A stretch of 20,494 nucleotides of DNA, from NCBI GenBank assembly GCA_034696485.1, contig JAQIWT010000432.1, forward strand, positions 1 through 20,494, in the 5' to 3' direction. Of the stretch, positions 1,702 through 19,374 are shown one piece after another (positions within the stretch are counted from its first letter, which is position 1; the number at the start of each line of letters is the position of its first letter). Position numbers and translations under genes: made by a program. Under the pieces are notes generated by a model. That model did not search any database. It saw only the letters and a program-made list of their open reading frames with translations, and was not told the origin of the DNA. This DNA is from Isohypsibius dastychi (taxonomy: Eukaryota > Tardigrada > Eutardigrada > Parachela > Isohypsibiidae).

Positions 1702-2042
1702 ATGAAATCTGCTGCTTCTAACGCTTGTCAGCTAAGGTGTCGGGGGTTCCTGCTCAAGGTAAGTGAATAAAGCACCAAAACACACATTAAAGCCCTTACA
1801 AGCGCTCAAAAACTGACGTAAAGGGCGAGTTTGGCATCATGGAGAGAATACAAGCTCTGTTTGGATGTTTATTTTGGATCATGGTTTTGGGGACACTGTT
1901 TACGTTGAATGGTTTGACTTACGATAATCAGATTAAAGAGCTGGCGTTATTGAAGAAACTCAATGCAACGTTTATTCTGAAGTTTCTGAAGCCCGGAATC
2001 CAAAGGGTCGAGTCTCGTAATTGGACAGAATTCGGCGCTTAG
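1702..2042 (+). CDS. Possible small membrane protein, perhaps two exons
   Basis: A 67-codon frame opens at the ATG at 1839 and ends at 2040-2042. It has an N-terminal hydrophobic segment (residues about 6-27) like a signal anchor, then a polar tail with an NAT glycosylation sequon. It overlaps the 3' end of the polymerase gene on the other strand by 71 nt. Upstream, an ATG at 1702 opens 19 codons that end exactly at AAG|GTAAGT. A possible acceptor at 1801-1802 rejoins the same frame and would give 98 residues. That intron would be 44 nt, shorter than the others here, with a weak pyrimidine tract. No family is recognised, and the frame may be chance. Confidence 0.28.
1971..1976 (-). terminator. 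Poly(A) signal AATAAA overlapping the polymerase stop codon
   Basis: On the minus strand the polymerase TAA stop (1974-1972) lies inside AATAAA (1976-1971). The stop codon and cleavage signal are fused, in keeping with the compact layout. Confidence 0.5.
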
Positions 2043-5000
2043 AGTAGGTCATCCGGAATTTCTTCTTGAGGGGAACCACAGAAACTTGCATGGTTTTCTT
2101 GTTTCGAATAATGTTAAAGTCGTAGGTGATCTCAATTGGAGCAACGCTTCCAGGGTCTTCGAGGGTTGAAATCAGCAAGTCTCGCAGCGATTCATATGTG
2201 AGAGCTTCCTGGGAATTCCGGTTGATGGTGAACCCCTTCACTTTAGTGACTTGTTTTCCAGTGTTGAGCATGTAGCTGTAGCTCTTCGGTCCGGTCGAGC
2301 AGAAATGAGTGATGTATTCGCCGGGGTTGAGGGAATCTGCCAGGTCGCCAAGAAAATTACCGGTCGGCGGATCAGCGTCACCTTCTCGGGAAATATAAAA
2401 CAGACTGTCGGTGTCTGTATAGAGAAGTCGGTCTCCAAGGAAATGCATATGCTTGAAGAGTAGTAACCTGGCGCAGGCAGTCGTCCAAGCAGCAAGGACC
2501 ACATTTGTTTTCCCACTCGTTGGGATGAAATCACTTTTAACTTTATAAGAGAGTTGGATGGTCTCGTCCGTAACAATGTCGAAACTTTTTACTTCGTATT
2601 CGCCCGAAGTCAGATACTTGTGGAACTCGGCGACATCTTGAATAAAAATAGTGTTTGATCTTGACTCACGTTCTCCAAGTTTTCCCCCTAAAACAAATTT
2701 TGTCAACACGATATCATCGAAAGGACCAAATAAAAATTTACAGAAGCTGTTGAGCATCATTTTTGCAAGGGCTCGAAGCCCCTCGTTGAAAACAATCTTT
2801 TTTTCATCCAAGCGAATTCCTTGTCGAACGAAGAATTCCTCGACATACGCAGTTTTCAATTCAGGCGTATTGCAGTCTGGTGGATATCCTGATGACTCAC
2901 TCTTTATTTTCAAGAATAAGTCAATGTAGTCTTTGAAGAGGTGCTTTTTACGTTCAGGAAAATCCCAAATTTCATACATTTTCAGTATTTTATAACCATG
3001 TTGAAGTGCCTCTTGCACCTCGTTGGTGCACCATGTACCTAAAAGGTTTAAATTATTGCTTGCTTGTTCTAAAAAAGGAAACAGTTAAATTACCTGTGAA
3101 TGCCCGTTCAGATTCTGAGTGAAAACAGTCCTCGTTTTGTTTGGTGATGCAGCATGATCGACAAAGCGCAAAAGTCAATTTGTCGGTTCGGAATGGAAGA
3201 ACCGGAATCAGCTGATTGGTGGGAGGTAGAATCATGCATTTAATCAGGCCGACAACGGTTTCGATTGGGGGGAAATCCTGTGTGTAAATTTTGGGGGCAC
3301 CAATTGGGTATTCAGCATTGCGGTTGATGAATGGGTATTGCGACACGATATCCAGGGAACGAATTCTTTCATCCGGTTTAATTTCATGCAGCAGTTTGAA
3401 AGCATTCGTTCGACCCCCGTAGAACGCATCACGAGGAAATAGTGGTTCGGTAATCGAGCAGGTCTTTCCAAAATCAGTAAAGTCAATGTCGGATTTCGCT
3501 TCATGCTCCCAAATGGAACGAACTGAATACCCCATATTACGTAGCTCCCGCAAACGTGACAAAGTGGATCGATTGACTTCGGCCATTGGTTGGTACAGAA
3601 TTGGATGTTGAAGATCAGGGCTGTAGCACTTCAAGCACCCATGCCAAAAGCACCTGGAATTTTTTTCTCGTTAAAAATTACACCAAGTGTGAGTAAAGTC
3701 TTACCCAAGAAATTCAAAACAACACATCATGTCGTTCGAAAATCCATCGACAGTCAGTCGTCCGACTCGGTGTTCATGTACAATATCCGTGTGCAAAGTC
3801 TCAGCCATGAACATTAACCACTTTGTTCCAATAATAGATTTCGGTTTTCCCCTGTTTGGTCCACAAGGCGAAATGAGACAAATCTGTTTGTCGAGCAACA
3901 TTGTCGCTCGCCAAAAGTAATTACACACTCCTGCAATAGTGAGGCCAACAGAATAAGGGCATATGCCAAGCGTGATCTGCATAAAGAGCAAACGAAACTT
4001 TTCGCTGGCTTTTTGAAGAACAAGAGTGTCCAGAATACAGTAGCTGATCAACTCATCATTGAAATCGAAAAGATTTTTCTTCCTGGTTTTCTCTTCGTCG
4101 TACCACAATGAGAATGCAGCTTTGTCGGAATCAGCCATAGATGAAAATCCATAAGATTCTTTGCTAGGCCATGGAATGATTTGATTCCAGTTTTCGGGTT
4201 TGTTGATGCTGAACGGAAATTTCGATTTGGAAATTTCGAGACCGAACGTCTTTCCAAACTTGGCCAGAGATTGAGAGACGTAATTCAAAGTGTCTCGGAA
4301 TCGAATACCGTGAGAAGGAACGTCCATTTGAACAATCTTACTTCCGTTGAAAATCAGTTTTGGAATGGTTCCAGATTTGATGAGGTAGCTCAAGATGAAA
4401 TAGCCGTCAAAAGCTTTAAAATTGTGGGCGATAATGATATAATCTTTGAACTGGCCACTGAATAAAAATTCGCACAAGTCAGCAGTAATGTCTCTTCCAA
4501 TCTCATCAGTCCGAGGCGGAAACACGTGAATCTCATCTCCAAACGTGACTACAGCCAGGTTCGGATAGAAAACTCCGTTTTCTTGCTCCACGGTTTCGAG
4601 GTCAAAATAGGCAATTTTCTGCTCAGCATATCTAGGTAGGTCTTCCGGGTTGACGATGACAGGCTTCATGAAACAATGGTGGTCTTCTTCTGCCAGGAAA
4701 AAATCTTTACAAGAGTGACAAAAACGTTCGTGGCATCGATGCACACGGCCACTGTACATGGTCTTGTAGAACACATCACAAGCCAAGCACACATGAAATT
4801 TCTGGCAAATGCTCCTGCCATTCAGTTTATTACTGTTGAAGAGCAATGCAGTCTTCTTGTGACTGGCGTAGCAGGTTTGCCCGTTAAAACGGCGGTTGCA
4901 GTCAGTACATTGAACGTACTCGGGTGGATCCTGATCGTTCACACAGTTGCTTTTCAAACACATTTTGCAGATGACTTTGCATCGGTGAATTCCCAAGTTG

Positions 5001-5974
5001 TTGTGTGCTTTGAGGCAGTCGAAGCAGTAGTAAGTTTGCGAGAAATATGCAGGTAGAGAAGTGATGACATCAAAGTGAGAATTATGGTGAAGAACGATAA
5101 TTCGTTTTGGTTTCGGAGGACCCGAGTAGATCACCGTGTTCAGATGATCCACAGAAACCACAACGACCTGGTAGTCCGGAAGAACGGCCTGGAAGGCAGG
5201 AAAATCATGCCGAGTGTAGGCCCTCACTGGTAATCCAGACTCGCCAATCAGTTCCATCGCGGTCTGAGTTTGAAAGGCTTTAGTTCGATACAAAGTGCGG
5301 TATCTCTGCATGTTTTCGTCGGCGTGAGCTTTTCCAATCACCAGGGCCCTTGCAAAACAAATGTCGTCCTTGTTGTTCACCTGAGTGATGCATCGCTTGC
5401 TAGCAAGCTTGCGTCGAAGCATTCCGGTTATGTCATTGTTGTTGGATCCAACTGGAATTCGTGTGTGTTGAACCGCAATGGTGAATGAGTCGTCCAACCG
5501 GAATTCTTCATTCGAATTGAGTACCCTCTCGATTTCTAACATCCAGCGGTTCACACTGAGTTGATCTCGACGTACTAACGGCGTCCATATTGGAGCTCGG
5601 AGGTTGGTGTTTTCGATCCTCAAACGAACCAAGTCATGCTCGGGTACATCTTGAAGAACAGTTTCAAGAAGATTCTCGAGGATTGAAGCAACTCCCTGGA
5701 CACTCAGGTGAAAAGGCAAATTTTCAAGATGTTTGACTGTTACTTCGAACGTTGTAAAAGTAATCTTAAATTTCGTGCAATGAAATGTCCCAGTCTCGCG
5801 GATGGTGAAGAAGTTTGCAATATGCCTTGGTAGACCATAACCAAACTGAACGTTTTCAAACTCTTCCAGCTTGGCTTTTGCCAGTTCATCGTCCTCAACA
5901 TGGGACTCACCCCAAATTTCATGAAGCCACTCATCCTCGTCCAGGCCATCGTAAAAAAGTTCTTCGACTTCCAT
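1972..5974 (-). CDS. polB: Protein-primed family B DNA polymerase (DNA_pol_B_2), three exons
   Basis: Exons in transcription order are 5974-3705, 3653-3094 and 3038-1972. The introns (51 and 55 nt) are GT-AG, and the phases close to 1298 residues, within the Polinton range. In order: an N-terminal region of unknown role; a Cys/His-rich zinc-finger block around residues 310-440; the 3'-5' exonuclease motifs ExoI FDLET (457-461), ExoII HNFKAFDG (517-524) and ExoIII YCILD (645-649); palm motif A SLDIVSQYP (856-864, Asp858); motif B KMMLNSFCKFLFG (1036-1048); and motif C YTDTDS (Asp1152, Asp1154). A GCFWHGC motif spans the first splice junction, as expected for this family. It should replicate the linear genome from a protein primer. 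All catalytic residues are present, so I see no sign of decay. The start lies 3 nt after the stop of the upstream gene. Confidence 0.95.
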
Positions 5975-5977
5975 TTA

Positions 5978-6607
5978 TTATAGCAAATAGTTTAAAACAT
6001 GGGCGAGGTCTTCAGAAATGGATTCACGCAAGTGCTTGTAAGCATTAAAATGTAACAAGAACAAGCTTTTCGTTCGAATGTTATATAGCTTCAAGAAGCA
6101 TCGCTCGCCTTGGCGGCCCCGTAGCCGTCGGCCCAAGCGAATGTAAAGTTCTTTCTTGTCAACCAAAGTCCAAGATTGGTCAATGATCGGTTGCTCCGGC
6201 TGATACTTATCTGCATCTTGATCATCTTGCAAACTTTGGTGTTCCGCGGCGTGTTTGTCGAACGATCTCACAAGCGCTGTAACTTGACTGTAACTGAGGG
6301 CTATCTTGGATCTTCCCGCCTGGAGAAGAGCATAATTCCTCTTGAACGTGAACGATGTGATCGATCTTTGATGCATCTTGATGCAAGATTTGTCTTGAAG
6401 AATGTATCTGGCTCTGACAAGGTGTTCTTTCGCAAACATTTTCATGTCTGAACGTGGAACCCCAAACGGTGAATTGGAGATTGCTAGAACTGGTAAACTG
6501 GGTGGACTTCAACTTTTGTAATGCATTGAAAACTTACGTTCGGGGTCTTGTAACATGGGCACCGGTGGAGCATCTAACTCGTCAGGAAAATTTAACAACT
6601 GATCCAT
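5978..6607 (-). CDS. Basic 179-residue protein, two exons, possible tandem PC4-like fold
   Basis: Exons are 6607-6538 (70 nt) and 6447-5978. The 90-nt GT-AG intron gives an unbroken 179-residue frame. A TATATA lies just upstream, and the stop is followed after 3 nt by the polymerase ATG, so the two may share a transcript. The protein is basic. Twice (about residues 55-87 and 122-168) it shows strands followed by a hydrophobic strand-helix unit, such as KIALSYSQVTALVRSF (71-86) and SLFLLHFNAYKHLRESI (151-167). This resembles the strand 3/helix unit of PC4-type ssDNA-binding coactivators. That is inference by eye. A terminal-protein or replication-accessory role would also fit its place beside polB. 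No close family is recognised. Confidence 0.72.
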
Positions 6608-7689: not shown

Positions 7690-7736
7690 GAGACATGAAA
7701 TTGTTAGTAATGCAATCAGTTCTGTTTTCGGTTTCG

Positions 7737-8693
7737 ATGGCTCCAACTAAGCGCCCAGCCTCTGAATCTTCGGAAGGTCCCGATCCCAAGAAAAGTTTTG
7801 TTAAACGAGAGTACACTTGTGAAGGATTTCCAGCTTACAAACTGGGATATGACCGTGCGCTGTGTGTCCGCGTCAACGATGATCAGAAGCTCGAATTTGT
7901 TCTTGGATGCTTCACTCCATCCCAACCTGGGAGTACCGCTCTGGTCCAAACCGAGAAAACGATCGTTCTGAGTGAACAACAAGTTGTCAAACTAATTGGC
8001 CTCATCTTCAACGAGAAACTTGCTCTAACTTCAAGCTCAAAGGTGGGAGACGGAAACATTTCACGTCTTCAAAGTATTGGAGAGAATGTCTACCTTGCAT
8101 GGTCATCATTCCAAGGTTCAGCCATGGTGCAGGTTCGAGAGCATTCGATTGGCTACAGCGGCCATATGTTTCCTACTAAAAGAGGCGCCACGTTGAACAC
8201 TGCAGCGTTTGAGGCTCTGCAGTCGTGCATCAAGGACGGGACTCTCATGAAGGCAATCGGTGAGTTCTCGCAGAAAGAACTCAGTATGCCACCTGGAGAC
8301 TTGCCATCCTTTACGGAGATCCTTGAGGAAACCGTTCCGAACGTTCTTTTGGAAATCGTTCGAGCTCGCTTGCAAGATCAATGCGATGTGTGCCAGAAAG
8401 CGGCGACTTTGTTTCAAGCTCCATTGTACGGTAACAAAGGACGACACACTTGCTTCTTCAATTCATCGGTCATTTCTGCCCCGGATGAGACCAAGCGAGC
8501 AGTCATCAAAGAGCTCAAGGCTGAGAAGAAAATTTCGGGAATGCTGTTGCTTTTGCATGAGAACATCACGTTTGCTCAGGCTATGGCTTTCAACAACGAT
8601 GCATACTTGGATGATCATGAAGTCAACTTGTGGAAATGCGTGGAGAAATATCGATTACTGGAGACGGGAGGGAAGAAGAAGGTCACTGTTTAA
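7737..8693 (+). CDS. PC4-like ssDNA-binding/transcription coactivator protein
   Basis: 318 residues from the ATG at 7737. An in-frame ATG 42 nt upstream is unlikely given the TATA box. Residues 1-20 carry a bipartite-type nuclear signal (KRP, then PKK). Residues about 113-168 match the PC4/Sub1 core in order: an IG and strand 1, a second strand reading VQVREHS (131-137), a G-x-M/F-P-x-K-R-G turn (142-150), then the final strand and helix ATLNTAAFEALQSCI (151-165). An earlier segment (about 41-92, ending TIVLSEQQVVKLIGLIF) has the same strand-strand-strand-helix order, so the protein may hold two copies, an intramolecular pseudo-dimer. The C-terminal half has a possible zinc site (C216, C219, H238, C239). 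PC4 binds ssDNA and links activators to TBP/TFIIA. The gene converges on the protease gene with an 11-nt overlap. Confidence 0.62.
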   Translation: MAPTKRPASESSEGPDPKKSFVKREYTCEGFPAYKLGYDRALCVRVNDDQKLEFVLGCFTPSQPGSTALVQTEKTIVLSEQQVVKLIGLIFNEKLALTSSSKVGDGNISRLQSIGENVYLAWSSFQGSAMVQVREHSIGYSGHMFPTKRGATLNTAAFEALQSCIKDGTLMKAIGEFSQKELSMPPGDLPSFTEILEETVPNVLLEIVRARLQDQCDVCQKAATLFQAPLYGNKGRHTCFFNSSVISAPDETKRAVIKELKAEKKISGMLLLLHENITFAQAMAFNNDAYLDDHEVNLWKCVEKYRLLETGGKKKVTV

Positions 8694-9192
8694 TGGCAAA
8701 AATGCTTTGTTCTATCAACTGCTTATCGTAAATTTGTGTCTTAACATCAAAGATGCGGTTCACTTTTTCAGTAACCATTTTATCGTTGTCGTTTTGATCA
8801 CTTGAAAACTGGCCGAGAAAAAATTGAAAACTCGAGTTTGATGCACGTTCCCATATGAAAAGACATGCAAATTGCCCACAAGCGGTACTAAATGGACTTT
8901 GCAGTGCAACATCTTGTAAACACACTCTTTTACCGCGACAAAAATTCTGAATTTCGGCATCGAAATCTTTGATGGGTCTTCCGAAGCTGTCGAAAAACTC
9001 CACCGTTTCTTGATCCGGTTGAAATATTCCTATCCAATGTTCTCCGGGTTTTCCATGGCGGTCCGTGTTTACAATATAGCCTGCTGGTAGGAATACAGCT
9101 TGTTTGATGGTATCAGCTGCAAACACTCCCGCAAACACTTTAGACGTAACTGAATTCTGACGCATGATATAATTGATCTGTGAAGTGTTCAT
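8683..9192 (-). CDS. Adenain-like maturation cysteine protease
   Basis: 169 residues. Catalytic His52 lies in GEHWIGIF, acidic Asp68 in EFFDSFGRP, Gln98 forms the oxyanion site, and Cys105 lies in STACGQFACLF. Order and spacing match the adenovirus protease (C5) and Ulp1-like viral maturation proteases, and the length is typical. It should cleave capsid and core precursors during virion maturation; candidate sites are visible in three small neighbours. Its ATG overlaps the stop of the spliced major capsid frame (ATGA, 9192-9189). Hexon followed by protease is also the adenovirus gene order. All catalytic residues are present. Confidence 0.93.
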   Translation of the reverse strand: MNTSQINYIMRQNSVTSKVFAGVFAADTIKQAVFLPAGYIVNTDRHGKPGEHWIGIFQPDQETVEFFDSFGRPIKDFDAEIQNFCRGKRVCLQDVALQSPFSTACGQFACLFIWERASNSSFQFFLGQFSSDQNDNDKMVTEKVNRIFDVKTQIYDKQLIEQSIFAIKQ

Positions 9193-10582
9193 GCTGTAAA
9201 GTCGGCAATCAGTTGGCGATGCTGGTTGATCTCTAAAAGAGACTTATTAGTTTGGAGAATTCAAATTTGTGCCGGATAAACTCACCTATAATGTTATCAA
9301 ACACCATATATACCACACACATTATAGTTTGGGCCAGTGGTGCTTCAAACTGCACACGAAGTGACAAGTTCCCTTGCTTGACCAAGGACATGAGCCCACG
9401 TCCAGTCCCACCAGGCGTCAAGTCAACAGCAAAAATCGAGTAACCATCCAGCCACTGGTATCGATTGAATGGAAGATCGCCCCAGTTGTTGTTTTTCTTT
9501 TGAAGAGTTGACAGCAATCCGTCATATGCTTCCAAGCACATGCCTTTGGTGGGATTGAGCTGGTAAGGTTTTGTAGGGAATGAAATACCTTCGGCTTCAA
9601 TGCTCAGCTGATTTAATTTGAAATGTTCAAACAAAAACGGGTTTTTATTTTTTTCGCCGTGGTAGTTTGATGATTTGATGAAGCCCGTGTAGATGACTTT
9701 TGGTAAAGCTCCAATGTGGATATTAGCGATTGTTGTTCCAGTGGTATCTTTGGGTATATCAATAGTACGAATCAGGACTCGTTCAATATGATACTTTGCT
9801 GTCGTGGTCGTGAGCTGCTGAGTGATGGCTGCAAGGTATGACGGGTTCGGGACCAATCGTGTAATCAAGAGTCGAGGGTTCCGAATATGAACTTTAAATT
9901 CAGTGGACAGGTTGGTACCCACGGACCAGTTTCGGAGATAGAACTCGGGGCGATTCAGAACAAACCGTACAGTCAACGGAACGAATGGAATCAGGTTTTT
10001 GCTCTGTTGAAAAATATCACAATGTGGTCGGCCCGAAAGTTCTACGTAGCCGTTTTTGACAAAAGGTGCTTTTCTCGCAATTTCGGCAGTGTTTGTGATG
10101 GTTTCAAACTCTCCACTCACATCCAAATTGAGAAGAGAGGACGTGAACTGACTGGCGATTGCAGTCGGAGAATTATGAAGGATATCTTCTAGATAGCTTC
10201 GGTGAGCATATGTCGGGCTGGCATCCGAGATTAGTCTGTTGGCCATCGTGACTTGAATGTGAGACCAGACAGAGTGAGCAAAATTATTGACTGGTGCCAC
10301 ATCATCACCAGCAACAATTGGAGTCCACACGGTATCAGTTGACGCTTTCTTTTTGATGCAGGCTTCAAATTCCAAAGTAACATCTGGTAGTGAAATGAAT
10401 GTCGATGATGGCGGTATGTAAAATGTCATATCCCCTGATGACATCTCTTCTGTGACACCGCTGGTTGGTAATATTCGTTCCGTTTCCAAGCGAATAAAGT
10501 CGGTGTAAGTAGCAGGAACTGTGAACATGTGCGACTCGAGCTGGAGTGCTGGCTCCGATCCTTCTTGCATCGAAAGAGCCAT
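9189..10582 (-). CDS. Major capsid protein (hexon-like, double jelly roll), two exons
   Basis: The large exon is 10582-9286 and a 44-nt last exon is 9232-9189, separated by a 53-nt GT-AG intron (9285-9233). The spliced product has 446 residues and ends in a polar NIIEINQHRQLIADF-type tail that resembles the C-terminus usual in Polinton capsids. Without splicing, the frame runs into the intron and stops at the acceptor TAG (449 residues). The N-terminal region shows the typical PPSSTFISLPDVTLEFE strand pattern, and long beta-rich stretches follow. Trimers of this protein would form the icosahedral shell. The ATG directly follows the stop of the pX-like gene. Identification rests on motif pattern and position between penton/pX and protease. 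Confidence 0.88.
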
Positions 10583-11002
10583 TTAGAAAATGTCAGGGAT
10601 GTCTCTTGGATATAAAGCACGTTTCTTTCTTCCTGTACTTTTCTGTTTCTTTCGTCGTTTCCTTGATCCGCCTTGTTGAGGTGCTGGTGCAAGTGCTTCT
10701 CCAATCTTTGCGCCGATTCTGTTTGTAGCTTCTCCAAGGGCTGATGTTGCTGCAGTCTTTAAATGAGGTTTTGCTGCTTCAAGAGCGCTTCTAACATGCG
10801 GAGCTGCAGATTTTAACAGAGGTTTTGCAAAGCTTGATAATTTTGTCAAAAGTGTTCGAAGAAAAGCCGGTATCATAAAACCACTTCCATTCTGCAACAG
10901 GCTACCCCGATATCGGGATAACATTTCTCCATGTCCAATCTGATGTTCGGTGAATATGTGCGCGTAAAACTGGTCCAGATCACCAACAGCTACCAGAGGC
11001 AT
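10583..11002 (-). CDS. pX/pVI-like minor virion protein with two protease sites
   Basis: 139 residues. After a variable N-terminus comes QNGSGFMIPAF, then an amphipathic helical stretch rich in A, L and K (about 42-105), and a strongly basic tail (SRKRRKKQKSTGRKKR, 113-128). Two matches to the adenain consensus frame the helix: Q37-N-G-S40|G41 (type [MILNQ]xGx|G) and Q109-Q-G-G112|S113 (type [MILNQ]xGG|x). Cleavage would give a membrane-active-looking helix and a DNA-binding basic peptide, like adenovirus pVI and pX. The start overlaps the penton stop by one base (TAATG), and the stop abuts the capsid ATG. Confidence 0.8.
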   Translation of the reverse strand: MPLVAVGDLDQFYAHIFTEHQIGHGEMLSRYRGSLLQNGSGFMIPAFLRTLLTKLSSFAKPLLKSAAPHVRSALEAAKPHLKTAATSALGEATNRIGAKIGEALAPAPQQGGSRKRRKKQKSTGRKKRALYPRDIPDIF

Positions 11003-11925
11003 TATCGGTAGTTTCGAAGTGGTCTAAAGTGTAACTTGACCAGCGACTTTCCGGTTTGAAATTTGGCGTCTTCTCCTAGGTCAGTTGTGAGGCTCAGCTG
11101 AATGGTGTCGAAAACTGGATGTAGGACGGGTGTGTAATGTGGCGAATCGAACCGTTCAATAATTGGTTGAAAGCGTACCCCTTCAACTTTAATGGGGACA
11201 GCTCGTAAAAGCTGCAGTGTTTCTCCTCCGACAATGTTGAAATCCACAATTGAAGAGTAAACAAAGATATTCTGACTTCCAGCTTGTAAATTCACAGGTC
11301 GGTCAGCAACCAGCTCGGTCTCGTATTCAAGCGAATCTGATTTGTTGAGAAGGAATAGTTGTTTTTCAAATGAACCTATTGGCTTGATCCGATTTTTTTC
11401 GAGTATTTTGAGAAATCGTGGTGCACTGTCCACCGAAAACACATCCCTGGTGAGGCCAAACATGATTTTGAGTAGCGGCGAGTTTGAAAAGTCAACATCC
11501 ACCCTCATACTACCAAGCGTCAGCTTGAGCTTTCCGTCAATCGGAGATATTCTGGCTGTGTATGCTGGCTTCTCAAGTATCGGTCGTCCAGGGAAGGGTT
11601 TGAGTTTTGGGCTACCAGCATTGAGCAAAGTTACAATGTCCTCTTTGCTATAGACTCCAGCTGGGAAATGCACTGTTGAGGTTTCCCGAGAAGATGTTAC
11701 TTCGTTCGGTGTATCTGTCACTTGTCTTATTAATATCTGCTGATCGGCAATGATGTTGTACATTGAGTTTGGATAAATCAGCTCGACCACTGCAACCTCC
11801 CATGATCCAGTTAAGTTCACAGCTTTTTTGAGCTTTGTCGTCCAGTTGGACGCGGTATTCGGATAAACGTCCATGCAGGCATCGCTAGGTAAGGTCATGT
11901 AAAATGAATTCTGAGATGATGCCAT
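11002..11925 (-). CDS. Minor capsid protein (penton-type, single jelly roll)
   Basis: 307 residues. The N-terminus has the Polinton penton pattern: a SFYMTLPSDAC strand, then YPNTASNWTTKL, and later LTGSWEVAVVELIYPNS (38-54). The rest is beta-rich. It should sit at the fivefold vertices. It lies 1 nt after the integrase stop and overlaps the pX-like start by one base. I see no breaks. An IVGG|E match to the protease consensus lies in a predicted strand and is probably chance. Confidence 0.85.
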   Translation of the reverse strand: MASSQNSFYMTLPSDACMDVYPNTASNWTTKLKKAVNLTGSWEVAVVELIYPNSMYNIIADQQILIRQVTDTPNEVTSSRETSTVHFPAGVYSKEDIVTLLNAGSPKLKPFPGRPILEKPAYTARISPIDGKLKLTLGSMRVDVDFSNSPLLKIMFGLTRDVFSVDSAPRFLKILEKNRIKPIGSFEKQLFLLNKSDSLEYETELVADRPVNLQAGSQNIFVYSSIVDFNIVGGETLQLLRAVPIKVEGVRFQPIIERFDSPHYTPVLHPVFDTIQLSLTTDLGEDAKFQTGKSLVKLHFRPLRNYR

Positions 11926-13016: not shown

Positions 13017-13604
13017 TCAAATCTTTATCCAACGGATTCCTTTTCCTGACATGACGGATCTTTCTTCAGGTATGGTTCTCTTTGGTATAACCCGTGTCCC
13101 GACTCGGTCTTTCAAGGGTCTCATAGGTGATGGCTCAATGAGTAGTGTTTTTGGGCGTCCTGGCTTTCTCCTCGATGCAAGTGGGCTCTTGAAATCCAGT
13201 TCGCCTTCCGAATCTGAAACCTCCTTTCGTACTTTTTTTGCACTTTTCCGAACTTTTGCTTTTTTCGGGACGAGTTTGAACTTTGGGGTTCGCAGTTTTT
13301 TTTTTGAGGCCAGAGGGTTTGTAGGCGCCGGCGGTTTTTCTTCATTCTGTTTAATTTCCGGAGGTTTTTCATCAGTCGCTGGTTTGAAAGCTAGAAATCT
13401 TTGGAGATTCTGATTTAACAAATCCGCTTTTTTCCAAACGTCCAAATCCTTTCGTTGCAGTATCTTTTTCGTAAGTTCATCAATGTCCAGAACCACACTT
13501 TCCTCTGGAGTCTGCTTGTTTGCGTAGAGTTTTGCAGCAGTTTGAACAATGTCGTGTGACTTCATAGCGGCAGCCGGTACAATGTAGTGAACTTCGGTTT
13601 TCAT
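13017..13604 (-). CDS. Lys/Pro-rich core-like protein with C-terminal protease site
   Basis: 195 residues. The first about 75 are mixed and helical (LDIDELTKKILQRKDLDVW); the middle is very rich in K and P. RKPGRPK (146-152) resembles an AT-hook, suggesting DNA binding or condensation like an adenovirus core protein. The last residues read M185-S-G-K188|G189-I-R-W-I-K-I, a match to the adenain consensus [MIL]xGx|G that would release a seven-residue C-terminal peptide. Adenovirus pVI releases its 11-residue protease cofactor in the same way; the parallel here is inference. The start overlaps the upstream stop by 4 nt (ATGA). Confidence 0.75.
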   Translation of the reverse strand: MKTEVHYIVPAAAMKSHDIVQTAAKLYANKQTPEESVVLDIDELTKKILQRKDLDVWKKADLLNQNLQRFLAFKPATDEKPPEIKQNEEKPPAPTNPLASKKKLRTPKFKLVPKKAKVRKSAKKVRKEVSDSEGELDFKSPLASRRKPGRPKTLLIEPSPMRPLKDRVGTRVIPKRTIPEERSVMSGKGIRWIKI

Positions 13605-13933
13605 GCTCGGCTAGCGATCACTGTTCCGAGCACTGATGCAAGAATAGGTAAAAGAGCAGGCAGAAAACCACCTTTTTGCATGAGAATCTCCTTTTTCGCT
13701 TTCAGAGGATGTCGTCTCAGGGCAAGCAACTTGATTTGCTTCCTCCACCGTTTGCAAGTTCTTAGCTGCTTGGCATCCAATGGCACAGAATTCTTACAAA
13801 TATTCAAGCACACCTCCTCAAATCCTCTTAGGTGGCTTTTGTTGCAAGCTTTTATCAGCGACGACCGTTGATTTGGTTTAAGACTCTTCAGGGTCATCAC
13901 GAAGGGTGCTAACTCGCGTACTTTGTCCGTCAT
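13601..13933 (-). CDS. Small virion peptide precursor (GG-cleaved hydrophobic tail)
   Basis: 110 residues. A helical, basic N-terminal part (LKPNQRSSLIKACNKSHLRG, then RTCKRWRKQIKLLALRR) is followed by LMQKGG|FLPALLPILASVLGT. The Q86-K-G-G89|F90 site matches the type II adenain consensus, and the freed 21-residue tail is a strongly hydrophobic, pore-like helix. This build (a conserved GGFLP-LLP tail after a basic domain) recurs as a small protein in Polintons and adintoviruses. A role in membrane penetration on entry is inferred. The gene overlaps the ATPase 3' end by 56 nt and the next start by 4 nt. Confidence 0.78.
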   Translation of the reverse strand: MTDKVRELAPFVMTLKSLKPNQRSSLIKACNKSHLRGFEEVCLNICKNSVPLDAKQLRTCKRWRKQIKLLALRRHPLKAKKEILMQKGGFLPALLPILASVLGTVIASRA

Positions 13934-14606
13934 TTTGGGGGAACGAGGTTTCTTCCGGATTCACATACACTCGCATACGTTCTCCCGGTAGAATATGTGA
14001 CCGAATCCGAAAGTGGTCTGGGGTATCACCGCGAAAATCGATAACTAGAGGCTGGTAGGGTTCAGCCATGACCATATCGTAGGCCGTGCTTAAATGCTTT
14101 AGTCCCATTTGCCGACCAAGGTGTTTCATCTGATTATTATCTCGCACGTTTTTGAATAGAAAAATATATTGTGCATTGAGATGAATATCTCTCATGGAAT
14201 TCCCTTGCTTATACAAATTATGCAGCATGAATAAGATGGACACGTTTTTGTGATGAATCTTTTGCGTGAACAATTTCGTAGCGTTTTTGTTGTCCACTAA
14301 AGCCTCGGTTACATCATCCAAAATCAGAAGCGTTTTTTCTCCGGCTCTGAAGAATGCCTCGTCTTCAAAAATCTGGGTGATGTTTTTCGTGAAGAAAACA
14401 TCCGGCATGTTCCGAGTCAGCTCTTCGTAGATCGATTGCCATTCGTCGTAAACGTAAACTATGCGATCAAACTTTGCGTCAAACACTTCCTCGCCGGCCA
14501 TGATTAATTTTGAAACAAAATGAGTTTTTCCACTCATCGTCCCACCGCATATTAGAGCTCCAAAAGGCGTTCTCAGTCTCAAATCGAATTTTGTTTCAGG
14601 CCACAT
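13878..14606 (-). CDS. Genome-packaging ATPase (FtsK/HerA, A32-like)
   Basis: 242 residues from the ATG at 14606; a GTG four codons upstream is not a likely start. Walker A is GGTMSGKT (21-28) and Walker B is LLILDD (93-98). They are followed by a sensor region FMLHNLYKQGNSMRDIHLNAQ (126-145) and FKNVRDNNQMKHLGRQMG, the typical Polinton pattern. The length is normal. It should pump DNA into preformed capsids. It is the first gene of the minus-strand cluster. A TATA box lies about 80 nt upstream. Its ATG shares the palindrome CATG (14604-14607) with the plus-strand gene. Confidence 0.93.
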   Translation of the reverse strand: MWPETKFDLRLRTPFGALICGGTMSGKTHFVSKLIMAGEEVFDAKFDRIVYVYDEWQSIYEELTRNMPDVFFTKNITQIFEDEAFFRAGEKTLLILDDVTEALVDNKNATKLFTQKIHHKNVSILFMLHNLYKQGNSMRDIHLNAQYIFLFKNVRDNNQMKHLGRQMGLKHLSTAYDMVMAEPYQPLVIDFRGDTPDHFRIRSHILPGERMRVYVNPEETSFPQNDGQSTRVSTLRDDPEES

Positions 14607-15117
14607 GTTTCGTCCCACAACTGAAATGACGTCAAACGTTGTAGTGGATATCGATTGGTTCGTCGCAGGGAAAAAAAGGATTATAAAGCAGCTTGCCTTT
14701 TGCGATTCTCATTCAGGATCCAGCGAGAGTTACTTGTTCACAATCCCCGACACCTTTAATCATCTGGGTCCTTATTTTGAACACCAAGCCCGTCATTCGC
14801 ATGGCTTAGTGTGGCATACTCGAGGCGATATTCACTATACCGAAGTGGTTCTTGCGATTCAGCAAATGCTGAATATATTGAACGTGCGAGCATCCGATAT
14901 TACGTTTTGGGCAAAGGGACTGGAAAAGGCAACGATTCTCGAGGCGTATCTGCCAGAAGTGAAGAATCTTGAGGATATCGGCTGTCCAAAGTTCACCAGG
15001 CTGACCGAAGCTCGGCAAACAACGCTTCGAAAGGCTGAGACGTTTGCTGCTTGGCTTCATGGCTCACGTAACCAATGTTGTAGCGACGGCAAAACTGAAT
15101 TGCATTCTGAATCTTGA
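14605..15117 (+). CDS. Exonuclease-like (RNase H-fold?) ORF overlapping the TBP start
   Basis: 170 residues from the ATG at 14605; an in-frame ATG at 14626 is an alternative. Landmarks in order: VVVDIDWF (12-19) with D15 and D17, KQLAFCD (28-34), HGLVW (66-70), FWAKGLEKATIL (101-112) and NLEDIGCPKF (121-130). The same string of motifs (DxxxF, HG-x-W, vKGxEK, NLExxgCPxL) occurs in uncharacterised invertebrate proteins linked to mobile elements, which I take to be degenerate or divergent DEDD-type exonucleases. That is recall plus inference. The last exonuclease motif is not clear, and the final 20 residues overlap the TBP ORF in another frame by 59 nt. A shortened or inactive enzyme is possible. 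Confidence 0.5.
   Translation: MFRPTTEMTSNVVVDIDWFVAGKKRIIKQLAFCDSHSGSSESYLFTIPDTFNHLGPYFEHQARHSHGLVWHTRGDIHYTEVVLAIQQMLNILNVRASDITFWAKGLEKATILEAYLPEVKNLEDIGCPKFTRLTEARQTTLRKAETFAAWLHGSRNQCCSDGKTELHSES
14681..14687 (-). promoter_or_regulatory. TATA box (TTTATAA) of the minus-strand cluster
   Basis: Minus-strand CTTTATAATCC lies about 75-81 nt before the ATPase ATG. It lies within the plus-strand exonuclease-like ORF. It is the only strong TATA sequence I see for the packed cluster running down to 8683. Confidence 0.4.
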
Positions 15118-15571
15118 ACATATAAGCAACACTGCTTCGGGTGTTCAGTATATTCCATCAGAATTTTCCGGATTGTTATTACGGCGGAATTCTGCAATCA
15201 AGAGTCACTGCCAAATATACAAGAACGGCCACATTACGGTGAACGGAGGAAAATCTGTACGGCAGTCACGATATCTTTTGCGCAAATATGTCAGAACCAT
15301 CAAGGCCCTGGGTTACCCCGAAATTCGTCCTTCAGATTTTAGAGTTGTCAATCTTATTGGTTCTGCTAATCTTGGACGTCGTCTCAACCTGCAGTCCGTA
15401 GCAAAAAAGTTTAACCTAACCTATGACTCGGAACTTTTTCACGGCCTTACAATTAAACTCAGCGAATGTACTGCTGTGGTATTTTATAACGGTAAAGTGA
15501 ACTTTTTAGGCGCAAAAAGTGAACTAGCGCTTCACGCAATGCTGATTGAACTTCTCATCATGATTGATTAA
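15059..15571 (+). CDS. TATA-binding protein (TBP) homologue
   Basis: 170 residues from the ATG at 15059, essentially the bare TBP saddle with no N-terminal extension. Two repeats are visible: residues about 3-83 (VTNVVATAKLNCILNLEHI, then YIPSEFSGLL and IYKNGHITVNGGKS) and about 93-165 (DFRVVNLIGSANL, then YDSELFHGLTI and VVFYNGKVNFLGAKSE). The minor-groove asparagines are kept (N6, N98). So are three of the four intercalating phenylalanines (F36, F127, F142), with Tyr54 in the fourth place. The GAKS turn and KYVRTIKALGYP helix are also typical. TBP nucleates transcription complexes on TATA boxes. The saddle is complete but divergent. Its 3' end overlaps the BIR-tailed gene by 4 nt. It may be host-derived or virus-specific. 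Confidence 0.9.
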   Translation: MAHVTNVVATAKLNCILNLEHISNTASGVQYIPSEFSGLLLRRNSAIKSHCQIYKNGHITVNGGKSVRQSRYLLRKYVRTIKALGYPEIRPSDFRVVNLIGSANLGRRLNLQSVAKKFNLTYDSELFHGLTIKLSECTAVVFYNGKVNFLGAKSELALHAMLIELLIMID

Positions 15572-17547
15572 AGTCGTACAGTTTCGCACATGAACTCAAA
15601 CGGTCGCTCTCGACAGTTGTAAGATGTTTGACATTTATGTCGACATGCGCGCATGAGATGATGATTGGATCCATCTCCATGGGGGAGAAAGATGCAGCCG
15701 CATCTCACGCACTTGAGTCGTCCATCTTTGCTGAAGCAGTACATTCCCAGTCTCGCTAAAACCGGGTGACCGCCGGTTTGTCTTTGTTGATATTTATGGA
15801 AGCTTTCTAGACGTCCTTCTGGCCAGTTCATTTCCGACAGCAGAAAATCAGGGTTCAATCCATATTTCTACAACAAGCAGACCTTGGCATGATTATCATT
15901 CATTCGACATGCAGTTTTTACCCTTTCATCAAGACCCAAATTTGCTCGAATATATTGATCGTTCATGAACTTGCCAAAGAAGCGTTTTTGGTTTTGGTCA
16001 ACTTCAGCTTGACTCGGGCGATGACTCCGTCGACATGACCGTGAGCTTCCCGTCATCATGTCTCGAATCAATTTGTCACACTTTTCACGAGGTTCTTCGT
16101 GGTAATTCGGTGGAGCAATGTGTTGGAACATTCGCTGTTGGTCCAACGTCATCCAGTATGCAGCAGCTACTTCAAGCCATTCCAGTGGCAACTCGTCTGC
16201 AATTTCAAACCACCCTTCATAGAAAAAACTTTTACCAGAACGTATCTTCGGGTTTTCGCGCAATCGCTGGTAATTTCCATCAAGGACTCTGTAGTTGGAC
16301 TCGTAGCTTCGCTGATAGATGAAAACGCAGGGCGTCAATCTGGTCATGTTCGTGATTTTCCAGACGGCACAACCGTCAATGCGTAATTTAACACTGTTCT
16401 CGCGCTCCATGACGTTTCGTTGCTCAACAGTGTCGCAGGCAAAGAGAGAATCCAGACTCAGCACACCAATGCTGATGTGGTGAAGCAATGCAGCACTAGG
16501 GCGATAACACGGTTTACCACGGTTTCGATTATCAGCCATAAATTTGTGGAGCCAATCATCTAGTTCTTTTCCGTTTTGTACGGGTGGCACCGTCGTGGCC
16601 ATCATCAAAGCCTGCTGTTTCAGGGTCATCCAGTGTTGCCTCAGGGGCTCATGCAGCAGTTCGCCGACAATTTCTAACACCTCGAAGAACTCTTTGTAGA
16701 TGACGACCGAACACGTTTTACCGGACAGAACCGGTTGATTTGTTTTCAAATCCCACACGTACAATGCCTGCAGTTTGGGACCGCTCGTTTCAGTTGGCAC
16801 AATGACTGGCCGAGTCGAATGATACGTTTGACGTTCTGATTGCCCGCTGCAGAAGCAATAGTTTCCGCCGCATTCCTCCAAACTAGGGTCTCTCATTTCC
16901 GGCATCTTCTTCCATTCCAGGTACCACTTTTCCAACTGGTCAAATTCTTTGCGGTTGAGCTCCACATTACCATCACCAAGATGTGGGACTGACCATAGTG
17001 ACGCTCGCGGTTCCATCAGTGGTTTCAGTTTGAGTGGGTCGACGACCGTGTGAGCACTTTTCACTTTCGGACTGCTGGCAGTGTCATCTCGTCGTCCCCC
17101 GTCCCAATTCATCTCTGGGCGTTTGGGGGCCGCCACTGTCTCTTTATCCGCACCAGAAATCTTGCCAACTGCCAAAACCGGTGACGGCGTGTCTCGGGAC
17201 ATTGGTGAATCTGATGATTCGCTGCTCGAAAAACTCAGAATTCGTGCTGGCTCGAGTCCCTCACATTCTTCTTCACTGTCCGACCCCTCCATGTTTTGAG
17301 AGACACTGTAAACTCGTCGTTCAGAGGTTTTAGCCATGCGACGTTTCTTCGGCGCGTTCAGGATATTCGAGACCTCTTCCTCGTCTTCTGAAGGCTCCAT
17401 GGATTCTGCAACAACAGGGTTGTCGACAATAGGTTTGGTTTCCGGTATACTATTGAACATACCGAAACGACACTTGTGCTCCTTTCCAAGTCGCTTCTCG
17501 TTATAGTCCCTTTCTGCAGATGATCTGGTTTGGATCTTACGAATCAT
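15568..17547 (-). CDS. 641-residue protein with disordered N-terminus and C-terminal degenerate BIR, two exons
   Basis: Exons are 17547-15922 and 15867-15568. The 54-nt GT-AG intron joins in phase 0 to 641 residues. Unspliced, the frame stops at the acceptor TAG, and the second exon alone lacks an ATG before residue 553. Residues 1-200 are acidic, Ser-rich and basic-patched (KKRRM), so probably disordered and nuclear. Residues about 200-540 look globular but are not recognised. The tail (about 562-621) has the BIR plan: RLESF, LARLGMYC, CVRC (C595, C598), H611/H612 and C617/C621, with spacing that is not canonical. BIRs bind IAP-binding motifs or caspases; a role in countering cell death is inferred. 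It converges on TBP with a 4-nt overlap. Confidence 0.78.
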
Positions 17548-17578
17548 ACTCAGGTTGACTTTCTATACAAAAATCCAT

Positions 17579-17588
17579 GTTATATACC
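17579..17588. promoter_or_regulatory. Bidirectional TATA element between the BIR-tailed gene and NADAR 1
   Basis: GTTATATACC reads TATATACC on the plus strand, 75 nt before the NADAR 1 ATG. It reads TATATAAC on the minus strand, about 38 nt before the ATG at 17547. One short sequence may serve both divergent genes. On the plus strand an AATAAT-type element (17610-17615) follows at 29 nt, as in neighbouring promoters. Confidence 0.5.
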
Positions 17589-17655
17589 ATTAGAGGGTTT
17601 GTTTCTTCAAATAATCGGTACATCGGCCTTTATTTTTCAACGCATTTACGGAATC

Positions 17656-18180
17656 ATGGACAACAACAACGGCAGTGCCAACTTCATAACCTTTGTGAGC
17701 TTTTTTTCTGCTGCTGGAGATAATGGTTACTTGTCTAGTTTTTACCCTTCACCGATAACCGTCGACGGAAAGACTTATCGTCACAGTTCAACGTACTACT
17801 ATGCAATGCGCTTCCCTGATCAACCTCAATTTCAAGAACAATTGCGAGCGGTTGTCAACCCTTCGACTGTGAAGCTCTTGGCCGACAGTGAACTTTATCC
17901 CGGCCGATCTGACTGGTTCAGGGTTCGCGATACGATCATGCGTCGAGCAATCTTTTACAAGTTCACTCAACACCCTGCCCTCTTTGAAAAACTTTTGACC
18001 ACAAGAGGAAAGAATATTATCGAGCAGACCAGTCGAAGCTGCTATTGGGGCAGCGGCGCCGATGGATATGGTGTTAATCGCATGGGAACTCTGTTGGTTG
18101 AGTTCAGAGATACGTATAAAAATGGAGACATCATGGCCGATGTTTTCAGTCCAGTAATTCAGCAATCCAGTCATGACTGA
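17656..18180 (+). CDS. NADAR-domain protein 1
   Basis: 174 residues from the ATG at 17656; the frame opens earlier but with no ATG. The domain fills the protein: NGYLSSFYPSPITVDGKTY (23-41), RSDWFRVRDTIMRRAIFYKF (84-103), YWGSGADG (130-137) and NRMGTLLVEFRD (141-152). NADAR proteins are N-glycosidases of the YbiA type. Some reverse guanine ADP-ribosylation of DNA as DarT antitoxins; others act on riboflavin intermediates. The helix that normally carries the Glu of the xEHxxQ motif reads SSTYYYA (44-50), so that Glu and Gln are missing and activity is doubtful. The last codons contain the promoter and ATG of copy 2 (8-nt overlap). Confidence 0.88.
   Translation: MDNNNGSANFITFVSFFSAAGDNGYLSSFYPSPITVDGKTYRHSSTYYYAMRFPDQPQFQEQLRAVVNPSTVKLLADSELYPGRSDWFRVRDTIMRRAIFYKFTQHPALFEKLLTTRGKNIIEQTSRSCYWGSGADGYGVNRMGTLLVEFRDTYKNGDIMADVFSPVIQQSSHD
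18115..18122 (+). promoter_or_regulatory. TATA box plus TCAGT initiator of NADAR 2, inside the NADAR 1 coding region
   Basis: TATAAAAA at 18115-18122 is followed by TCAGT at 18146-18150. The initiator A is at 18148, 33 nt from the start of the TATA box, close to the canonical arthropod spacing. The ATG of copy 2 is 25 nt further on. Confidence 0.5.
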
Positions 18181-18604
18181 TTTTGGGTCGTATCGCGGAA
18201 CTAATGGATACCTTTCTTGTCATTATCCATCTCAATTCACCGTGGATGGGAAGACCTATCGTTCCGCTACAGCATACTTTCAAGCAATGAAATTCCCGGA
18301 CAGCCCCCAGTTTCAAAAACAGATTCGTCTTGCAAAGCAGCCTGAAGAAGCTTACCTACTGGGTGGAACACTCGGCCCTTTGCCCATCGACTGGATCGAT
18401 AAACGTGATGATATCATGAGAGCTGCGATTCGTCACAAGTTTACCCAGAACCCTCATTTATTTAACAAGCTCTTGTTGACTGCACCACAAGGTGACATTG
18501 TTTTTTATTTTGATAGATACTGGGGCATTGATTTTTTTGGTTCGGGTGAGGGTGATAACCGCATGGGTCAACTTTTGGTCGAATATCGTGATTCAAAGCT
18601 TTGA
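18173..18604 (+). CDS. NADAR-domain protein 2
   Basis: 143 residues, the shortest copy; it starts directly at the domain edge (NGYLSCHYPSQFTVDGKTYR, 11-30). Other landmarks are IDWIDKRDDIMRAAIRHKF (72-90), YWGIDFFGSGEGDNRMG (116-132) and LLVEYRD. The active-site helix reads SATAYFQ (31-37): the Gln is kept, but the usual Glu is Thr33. It overlaps the end of copy 1 by 8 nt (ATGACTGA), with a likely promoter of its own inside copy 1. It is closest to copy 1 in the shared FP-x-x-PQFQ (41-48 here) and NRMG-LLVE features. Confidence 0.88.
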   Translation: MTDFGSYRGTNGYLSCHYPSQFTVDGKTYRSATAYFQAMKFPDSPQFQKQIRLAKQPEEAYLLGGTLGPLPIDWIDKRDDIMRAAIRHKFTQNPHLFNKLLLTAPQGDIVFYFDRYWGIDFFGSGEGDNRMGQLLVEYRDSKL

Positions 18605-18622
18605 TTTCATCTGTTCACAACA

Positions 18623-18630
18623 TATATAAG
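18623..18630 (+). promoter_or_regulatory. TATA box (TATATAAG) of NADAR 3
   Basis: TATATAAGCAAC begins here, 42 nt before the ATG. The identical 12-mer precedes the gene at 20076. TCAGTT (18646-18651) and AATAAA (18653-18658) follow. Confidence 0.6.
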
Positions 18631-18652
18631 CAACCCAGTCGTTTGTCAGTTC

Positions 18653-18658
18653 AATAAA
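18653..18658 (+). terminator. AATAAA between NADAR 2 and NADAR 3
   Basis: It lies 49 nt past the NADAR 2 stop and 7 nt before the NADAR 3 ATG, 30 nt after the start of that gene's TATA box. It may be the poly(A) signal of copy 2, part of the promoter of copy 3, or both. Confidence 0.4.
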
Positions 18659-18664
18659 TCCAGA

Positions 18665-19231
18665 ATGTCAAAGCAACTTATCTTCTTCTCGAGCCCAACT
18701 GGCGAAAATGCCTACTTGTCGAACTATTACCTCTCTAAATTCGCTGTTGACGGCCACGTCTATTCTTGTGCCGAGGCATATTTCCGTTGTATGAAGTACA
18801 TTGATGTACCAAATTACCCACAGTGGTTACGTACGTGTGGGAGACTCTCGGCTGCCCCTTTGTTTGGAAAGCATGACCGGTGGGCACCTCGAGGCGATTG
18901 GGCCGAGATGCGAGAAGATGTTATGCGCGAAGCCATTTTTCACAAATTCGACCAGAACCCAGTCTTGATGAGGGAGTTGCTAACGACAAAGGACGCCATT
19001 CTCATCGAAATGTCTCGTCTCCCCACACCGGCCTATTTTTCGTTCCTTGAACTCGAAAGAAATAATAATGGCCGACGTGTCCCATCGAACACAGTTCTGC
19101 CGGACATTCAACCCGAAGACTACTGGAAGAATGACCCCTTTGGTAGCCGGTTCCCAAACATGGGTCAGATGCTAATGGACTTGCGTGATTCTAAGAGTTC
19201 TGGTTCTCATGTTAAAAAAAGTTTGTTCTAA
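18665..19231 (+). CDS. NADAR-domain protein 3
   Basis: 188 residues. Landmarks: NAYLSNYYLSKFAVDGHVY (15-33), the helix CAEAYFRCMKY (35-45) that keeps Glu37 but has Arg in place of Gln, DWAEMREDVMREAIFHKFDQN (79-99), and MGQMLMDLRDS near the end. Between the LIEM strand and the final helix is an insert of about 35 residues containing LPTPAYF and PEDYW, shared in layout with copy 4 but absent from copies 1 and 2. The usual WG-x-G is replaced by YW-x-x-DPFG. With the Glu present this copy could be catalytic. It has its own TATA promoter. Confidence 0.88.
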   Translation: MSKQLIFFSSPTGENAYLSNYYLSKFAVDGHVYSCAEAYFRCMKYIDVPNYPQWLRTCGRLSAAPLFGKHDRWAPRGDWAEMREDVMREAIFHKFDQNPVLMRELLTTKDAILIEMSRLPTPAYFSFLELERNNNGRRVPSNTVLPDIQPEDYWKNDPFGSRFPNMGQMLMDLRDSKSSGSHVKKSLF

Positions 19232-19330
19232 ATGTGTCAGAGTTCATGACCGGAATTCAATTCACAACAGCGTTTTTTCGTTTGGTTCCATGACCCGTCT
19301 GTTCAAAGTTTAATCAGATCAACAAATCGG

Positions 19331-19337
19331 TATATAA
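19331..19337 (+). promoter_or_regulatory. TATA box (TATATAA) of NADAR 4
   Basis: TATATAACCAGCTC begins 44 nt before the ATG at 19375 and resembles the neighbouring promoters; AACAAAATC follows about 24 nt later in the place of the AATAAA-like element. The rest of the 143-nt spacer after NADAR 3 shows nothing recognisable. Confidence 0.55.
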
Positions 19338-19374
19338 CCAGCTCCTTTGCTGTGAACAAAATCGACGTACAATC

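What the first reader, a model, noticed from the sequence alone, without database searches (positions are those of the whole stretch)
15059..15571. A complete TATA-binding-protein homologue encoded by a Polinton/adintovirus-like element
The 170-residue ORF is a whole TBP saddle with both repeats, the two minor-groove asparagines (N6, N98) and three of four intercalating Phe (F36, F127, F142; Tyr54 in the fourth place). Viral TBPs are known from giant DNA viruses, but I do not know of one as part of the Polinton/adintovirus gene set. It sits between element genes in both directions with overlaps, so it is not simply host flank. The Phe-to-Tyr change and loss of any N-terminal extension suggest specialised promoter reading.
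Basis: partly seen in the sequence, partly recalled or inferred. Interest (0 to 1): 0.92.

Follow-up and report, generated by a model that had tools for sequence, protein, structure and literature searches.

The report
Virus-like element with own TATA-binding protein
A virus-like mobile element found in many diverged copies in one eukaryote's genome assembly carries its own version of the TATA-binding protein, the protein that marks where genes start, and its changed residues on the predicted DNA-touching face would likely let it switch on the element's own genes with the host's transcription machinery.

Summary
15059-15571 (+) is a 170-residue TBP core: PF00352 in both repeats, E 1.4e-31; predicted fold pLDDT 97.4, best matches all solved TBPs. 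It is neither host flank nor a chimera. In the same assembly TBP lies on 13 of 17 contigs with a related packaging ATPase (37% identity or more) and on 0 of 13 contigs of a more distant intact ATPase lineage. A likely host TBP is separate. A profile search lists 61 relatives of this type; 61 tree rows, window included, form one side of a 99/96 branch. TATATAA boxes precede some PolB, orf170 and accessory genes but 0 of 33 structural, packaging and integrase starts. I found no earlier report; the founding adintovirus paper was not held.

The parts
15059..15571 (+). TBP gene, 170 aa in one open frame, both saddle repeats
   Evidence: Pfam PF00352 E 1.4e-31; PDB phmmer TBP E 1.2e-19; AlphaFold2 pLDDT 97.4; Foldseek/VIA to TBP cores
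14605..15117 (+). orf170, ORF of unknown function directly 5' of TBP and overlapping it; the pair is kept on contigs C394, C101, C131, C157 and, with TBP in broken frames, C1494
   Evidence: no Pfam or PDB family
13878..14618 (-). A32/FtsK-type packaging ATPase, divergent from orf170-TBP; first in-frame ATG at 14606
   Evidence: PF04665 E 4.1e-4, just under its cut-off; homologues on TBP contigs
13601..13933 (-). 110-aa ORF resembling adenovirus core protein X
   Evidence: PF05829 E 5.9e-5, just under its cut-off; conserved in sister elements
13017..13604 (-). 195-aa ORF, unassigned, related ORFs on C394 and C157
11927..12877 (-). retrovirus-type integrase
   Evidence: PF00665 E 9.8e-8, at its cut-off
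11002..11925 (-). 307-aa ORF, probable minor capsid protein (name inferred from position)
   Evidence: conserved in sister elements; no Pfam match
10583..11002 (-). 139-aa ORF, unassigned, conserved in sister elements
9233..10582 (-). 449-aa ORF, probable major capsid protein (name inferred); its 3' end has intron-like signals, GTGAGT at 9285 to TTTTAG at 9233
   Evidence: relatives (five named F54H12.2-like, Paramacrobiotus); splice signals; intronless relatives
8683..9192 (-). adenovirus-type maturation protease
   Evidence: PF00770 E 6.8e-5, above its cut-off
7695..8693 (+). ORF with a PC4 (transcriptional coactivator p15) domain; a second in-frame ATG lies at 7737
   Evidence: PF02229 E 3.4e-7, above its cut-off
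1972..5974 (-). viral-type PolB in three frames (introns or decay not resolved)
   Evidence: PF03175 in three ORFs, the last one under its cut-off
6081..6087 (-). TATATAA box upstream of PolB, also present upstream of PolB in C394 and C101
7682..7688 (+). TATATAA box upstream of the PC4-domain ORF (13 nt before the ATG at 7695, 55 nt before that at 7737)
17580..17586 (-). TATATAA box upstream of the 559-aa ORF (15868-17547, -)
18623..18629 (+). TATATAA box upstream of the third NADAR ORF
19331..19337 (+). TATATAA box upstream of the fourth NADAR ORF

Best explanation
The ORF encodes a TATA-binding-protein core that recurs as a gene of a Polinton/adintovirus-like element family, and it likely acts as the element's own promoter-recognition factor, predicted to read non-canonical element promoters with an altered DNA face and to recruit the host's TFIIB and RNA polymerase II. 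Shown: the gene, its linkage in many diverged copies, purifying selection, and class-wide replacement of residues that map to the DNA face of a confidently predicted TBP fold, with the best-known TFIIB-facing glutamate kept. Shown as sequence: TATATAA boxes lie before some PolB, orf170 and accessory genes but before none of the structural, packaging or integrase starts counted. Inferred: host TBP would start the first group from canonical boxes, and the element TBP would then direct the TATA-less structural genes. No TFIIB match lies on the element contigs found here and no RNA polymerase family was seen among the window ORFs scanned, so the rest of the machinery would have to come from the host nucleus.
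For: TBP family and fold. Element gene, not flank: same-contig TBP on 13 of 17 contigs with an ATPase at 37% identity or more (and 50 bits or more), against 0 of 13 contigs of the 31-36% class without internal stops; TBP beside orf170 or overlapping the ATPase start. Two database contigs probably link TBP to the capsid-like ORF too: P0022/P0141 (20036 bases) and P0061, P0062/P0136 (21688 bases) share source and contig length (an inference from lengths). One class: 99/96 branch of 61 rows. DNA face, 62 class rows against 11 cellular rows: Y54 60/62 (F 11/11), T60 61/62 (V 11/11), N62 62/62 (T 11/11), V140 61/62 (L 11/11), N148 61/62 (V 11/11), L150 58/62 (T 11/11), Q52 57/61 (L 10/11). Residue 125 (yeast E188, human E286, a TFIIB contact as recalled) is E in 62/62, while three recalled TFIIA-contact positions (28, 30, 44) have mostly lost the cellular residues. 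Changes at yeast V203 and L205 are two of the three in the laboratory altered-specificity TBP (recalled); here T138 50/62 and V140 61/62. That three substitutions in the second repeat let TBP use TGTAAA is in a passage of PMC10005294. Selection: dN 0.062, dS 0.66. Promoters: TATATAA 6 in the window against 0.57 expected, 0 of 100 shuffles; 0 of 33 structural starts against 9 of 34 others, Fisher p 0.002. A PC4 coactivator domain in the same element. TFIIB matches only on C503 and C870. Precedent for the idea: an algal giant virus with TBP and two TFIIB is proposed to redirect host Pol II (passage of PMC12085832).
Against: No shared motif was found upstream of the structural genes. TGTAAA is not enriched: 17 against 12.4 expected, 13 of 100 shuffles as many. 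In the k-mer test the TATA words of the other genes did not pass the shuffles' maximum either, and 0 of 6 boxes in the block from protease to TBP has a chance probability of 0.086. The gene classes were set after looking, homologous genes are not independent, many structural starts lie inside the preceding gene, and the 34 others include 6 PolB pieces that are not true starts. The window's own orf170-TBP unit has no TATATAA box, though C131 and C157 do. Two other recalled TFIIB contacts are less kept: position 123 is E in 28 of 62 (D in the window), 126 is L in 46 of 62. Group B TBPs carry I and L in place of the two Thr and one has lost the second Asn, so the DNA face is not one fixed design. 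No expression or binding data exist. The roles of contact residues are recalled.
Confidence: 0.5

Rival explanations
1. The TBP is a general booster: it binds ordinary TATA boxes and only raises or frees transcription of element genes from host control (loss of TFIIA, Mot1 or NC2 contacts), without new sequence specificity.
For: Core fold, both Asn and three of four Phe kept; canonical TATATAA boxes exist on the element, 6 against 0.57 expected; recalled TFIIA-contact positions changed.
Against: Class-wide replacement of both central Thr, two Val and one Phe on the DNA face is not expected for unchanged TATA reading; most counted gene starts lack the box.
Confidence: 0.22
2. The TBP is a decoy that ties up host TFIIB or occupies host promoters and so damps host transcription or antiviral response.
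For: One TFIIB-facing Glu kept in 62 of 62, TFIIA-facing residues mostly lost, an arrangement that could give dead-end complexes; the element also carries IAP-like and NADAR ORFs that could act on the host.
Against: A decoy needs no fixed, polar, class-specific set of base-facing residues, and that set is kept across the class.
Confidence: 0.13
3. It is a DNA-bending factor for element replication, packaging or integration, not transcription.
For: TBP overlaps the start of the packaging ATPase ORF in group B and lies close to it in C432, C394 and C101.
Against: In C131 and C157 the TBP lies by PolB, far from the ATPase; a TFIIB-facing Glu is kept.
Confidence: 0.08
4. It is a host TBP or TRF copy captured recently, or an assembly chimera, with no element role.
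For: Giant viruses show that TBP genes do occur in viruses.
Against: The likely host TBP, C792, groups with cellular TBPs and the element class is separate at 99/96; repeated linkage on independently diverged contigs and purifying selection.
Confidence: 0.02

Closest known systems
Cellular TATA-binding protein (eukaryotic and archaeal TBP core, PF00352)
   Different: 25-29% identity to the 44 solved TBP chains; class-wide Y54, T60, N62, V140, N148, L150; recalled TFIIA-contact positions changed; encoded by a virus-like element
Giant-virus TBPs (HaV01, mimiviruses, Ectocarpus virus, asfar-, irido- and ascovirus relatives)
   Same: Virus-encoded TBP fold (BFVD)
   Different: 7-18% identity over the 50 matches. 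Passages read: megavirus carries TBP with TFIIB and RNA polymerase subunits, Yellowstone algal viruses TBP with TFIIB, Chrysochromulina parva virus BQ1 TBP with two TFIIB and proposed use of host Pol II. The last is the nearest precedent for the mechanism, but no TFIIB match was found on the element contigs here
Mirusvirus TBP, and TBPs in endogenous elements of putative mirusvirus origin in Cymbomonas
   Same: Virus TBP: 59% of mirusvirus genomes (passage of PMC10132985); sporadic in the Cymbomonas elements (passage of PMC10675990)
   Different: Mirusvirus genomes of hundreds of kb; the Cymbomonas elements have HK97-type capsid genes and no DNA polymerase, ATPase or jelly-roll capsid gene; no sequence comparison made here
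Polintons / adintoviruses
   Same: PolB, integrase, adenovirus-type protease, packaging ATPase, capsid-like ORFs
   Different: TBP: no mention in term searches of five papers on or touching such elements. PC4 domain: looked for by term only in the first two
Laboratory altered-specificity TBP (recalled as I194F, V203T, L205V)
   Same: T138 and V140 sit at the V203 and L205 places with the same residues (numbering recalled, offset consistent)
   Different: Position 194 is T in the window (mostly S, R or T in the class), and both central Thr are replaced as well

Membership tests
TBP family | Two PF00352 repeats above the curated cut-off | tested here: met
   108.6 bits for the protein, cut-off 22.9, two stretches
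TBP family | Saddle fold over the whole chain | tested here: met
TBP family | Two minor-groove Asn and four intercalating Phe | tested here: met
   N6, N98, F36, F127, F142 present; the fourth is Y54: met but for one conservative change
TBP family | Binds and bends TATA-like DNA, recruits TFIIB | not testable with these tools
   Needs binding assays
Polinton / adintovirus-like element | Viral-type PolB and retrovirus-type integrase | tested here: met
   PF03175 E 1.4e-20, PF00665 E 9.8e-8 at cut-off
Polinton / adintovirus-like element | Adenovirus-type protease | tested here: met
   PF00770 23.1 bits, cut-off 21.3
Polinton / adintovirus-like element | A32/FtsK packaging ATPase | tested here: inconclusive
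   PF04665 E 4.1e-4, 20.3 bits, just under its cut-off of 22.8
Polinton / adintovirus-like element | Double jelly-roll major capsid protein | tested here: inconclusive
   449-aa ORF in the expected place, five relatives named F54H12.2-like; no Pfam or PDB sequence match; not folded
Polinton / adintovirus-like element | Terminal inverted repeats and target-site duplication | tested here: inconclusive
   No terminal inverted repeat of 20 nt or more in the contig, but the contig may cut the element's ends
Giant virus (Nucleocytoviricota) fragment | RNA polymerase, TFIIB or other giant-virus transcription genes nearby | tested here: not met
   No such Pfam hits among the window ORFs scanned; TFIIB only on C503 and C870

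The most novel reading that the evidence does not exclude
A natural altered-specificity TBP: a roughly 20-kb virus-like element runs a private core-promoter code inside the host nucleus, using only its own TBP (perhaps with a PC4-type helper) and otherwise the host's TFIIB and Pol II. It would be the smallest viral take-over of promoter choice by a TBP that I know of.
Probability: 0.4. Interest if true: 0.88.

Novelty: new variant of a known kind. Interest (0 to 1): 0.72.

Why it matters
TBP is among the most conserved proteins of archaea and eukaryotes, and its DNA face hardly varies (general knowledge; here 11 of 11 cellular rows agree at six positions). Here is a large natural class in which that face differs as a fixed set, in small virus-like elements that seem to bring no polymerase. 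It offers a direct test of whether TBP can evolve a new core-promoter specificity in nature, and of how a small nuclear DNA virus could time its genes. It also puts a basal transcription factor into the Polinton/adintovirus gene pool, from which larger eukaryotic DNA viruses are often derived (general knowledge).

Full report

It is part of an element. Around it are PolB, an IAP-like ORF, a PC4-domain ORF, an adenovirus-type protease, capsid-like ORFs, an integrase and a packaging ATPase. The window is contig C432 of a 30.4 Mb assembly in 1648 contigs. That assembly holds 28 PF00352 matches on 18 contigs. On C394, C101, C157 and C131 the TBP follows orf170 on the same strand, with other element genes around; C1494 keeps orf170 beside a TBP in broken frames. 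On C439, C198 and C801 a more diverged TBP (in two frames on C198) overlaps the start of the ATPase. With the window's ATPase as query, 17 contigs have a match at 37% identity or more and 50 bits or more; 13 of them also have a PF00352 match (missing: C192, C124, C1479, C239). Of 13 contigs with a 31-36% match without internal stops, none has one. So the gene marks one element lineage, and a lineage without a TBP match lives in the same genome. Contigs may be cut and only the best candidates are scored, so the counts are lower bounds. The likely host TBP on C792 has a separate upstream exon-like frame and no tblastn match to element genes in the 10 kb fetched.

A class, not a singleton. A single-sequence search gave 13 proteins. 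A profile search gave 633 at E 1e-6 or less, 120 listed; P0002-P0012 and P0015-P0064, 61 proteins, rank above the first cellular-type row. Fifty-seven of these entered the residue counts. None of the 61 bears an organism name in the list. The tree of 74 rows puts 61 class rows (the window, four own-genome copies, 56 of the listed proteins) on one side of a 99/96 branch, the 11 cellular rows on one side of a 99/93 branch, and the two group B rows apart at 100/99. Whether group B and the main class share one origin depends on the root, which is not settled.

The DNA face. In 62 class rows against 11 cellular rows: F to Y at 54 (60/62), V to T at 60 (61/62), T to N at 62 (62/62), L to V at 140 (61/62), V to N at 148 (61/62), T to L at 150 (58/62), and L to Q at 52 (57/61). 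In yeast numbering these are 116, 122, 124, 205, 213, 215 and 114, which I recall as base-contacting positions; the ends of the alignment agree. Of 33 positions fixed in both classes (90% of class rows, 80% of cellular rows), 13 are fixed differently, and 7 of these 13 are on my recalled contact list, against 5 of the 20 fixed alike (6, 36, 98, 127, 142). Position 138 is T in 50 of 62 (V in 10 of 11 cellular rows); with V140 it repeats two of the three changes that I recall for the laboratory altered-specificity TBP. A review passage confirms that three changes in the second repeat let TBP use TGTAAA (PMC10005294) but does not name the residues in what I saw.

Partner faces. E125, recalled as a TFIIB contact, is kept in 62 of 62; two other recalled TFIIB contacts are less kept (123 E in 28 of 62, 126 L in 46 of 62). 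The recalled TFIIA contacts at 28, 30 and 44 (N, E, R in 10-11 of 11 cellular rows) are mostly M/L, Q/L and L/F. TFIIB-family matches in the assembly lie only on C503 and C870. Megavirus carries TBP with TFIIB and RNA polymerase subunits, Yellowstone algal viruses TBP with TFIIB, and Chrysochromulina parva virus BQ1 TBP with two TFIIB and a proposed redirection of host Pol II (passages). The last is the closest published idea to the mechanism proposed here.

Promoters. TATATAA occurs 6 times in the window, 0.57 expected, 0 of 100 shuffles as many; five lie upstream of assigned ORFs, the sixth (20036) is unassigned. Within 150 bases upstream of starts in C432, C394, C101, C131 and C157 it precedes PolB in 3 of 4 starts, orf170 in 2 of 4 (C131, C157), PC4 in 1 of 4, NADAR in 2 of 6, and the 559-aa ORF. 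It precedes 0 of 33 structural, packaging and integrase starts against 9 of 34 others (Fisher p 0.002; A+T 58% in both). Classes were named after looking, homologues are not independent, and the 34 include 6 PolB pieces that are not true starts. Within the window alone, 0 of 6 boxes in the protease-to-TBP block has probability 0.086. No alternative motif emerged, and the TATA words did not pass the shuffles' maximum in that k-mer test either. TGTAAA is at chance. This part is suggestive only.

Nuclear expression. The 3' end of the capsid-like ORF has GTGAGT at 9285 and a pyrimidine-rich TTTTAG ending at 9233. The frame after it reads INQHRQLIADF, and intronless relatives end with the same kind of peptide (consensus; C131 and C157). 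This points to a spliceosomal intron and hence to nuclear Pol II, by inference.

Selection. Against C27, over the shared frame, dN is 0.062 and dS 0.66; C394 against C101 has dN 0.148 with saturated synonymous sites.

Mechanism. I favour an element-specific TBP that hands viral promoters to host TFIIB and Pol II, perhaps for the structural genes. Gene, class and fixed residues are shown; the fold is predicted; binding, specificity and timing are inferred.

Novelty. Virus TBPs are known (50 BFVD matches at E below 0.001; none whose name is given is a Polinton or adintovirus, many have no name). No held paper found was seen to report a TBP in Polintons or adintoviruses, with passages read as told under Tried and rejected; the founding adintovirus paper was not held.

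Noticed in passing
17530-19956 (+): Four tandem NADAR-domain ORFs; NADAR also occurs on C394, C101, C801, C27 and C360, which carry related elements, and on C480 and C45.
   Followed up: partly
6653-7816 (-) and 15568-15858 (-): An IAP-like ORF with BIR and RING domains, and a second short BIR-like ORF next to the TBP (BIR below cut-off there).
   Followed up: no
7695-8693 (+): PC4 (p15 coactivator) domain ORF; PF02229 also on C131 and C1246, and tblastn relatives on C394, C101, C131 and C1494: a second basal-transcription-type gene of the element.
   Followed up: partly
9233-9285 (-): Intron-like signals at the 3' end of the capsid-like ORF, absent from the C131 and C157 relatives.
   Followed up: partly
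14605-15117 (+): orf170 family, kept directly before the TBP in group A elements, with D-x-D-W and G-C invariant in five aligned copies; no known family.
   Followed up: partly
contigs C147, C265, C1522, C1040, C276, C450, C693, C907, C154, C8, C824, C220, C87: A second lineage of ATPase-bearing contigs without a TBP match in the same assembly; capsid-like matches also lie on eight of them.
   Followed up: partly
L046 (C27:1-10000): A decayed close copy of the window's TBP-NADAR side at the start of a 53-kb contig whose second 10 kb shows no match to element genes, pointing to integration; the rest of the contig was not read.
   Followed up: partly
20036-20042 (+): A sixth TATATAA box with no assigned gene behind it before the contig end.
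   Followed up: no
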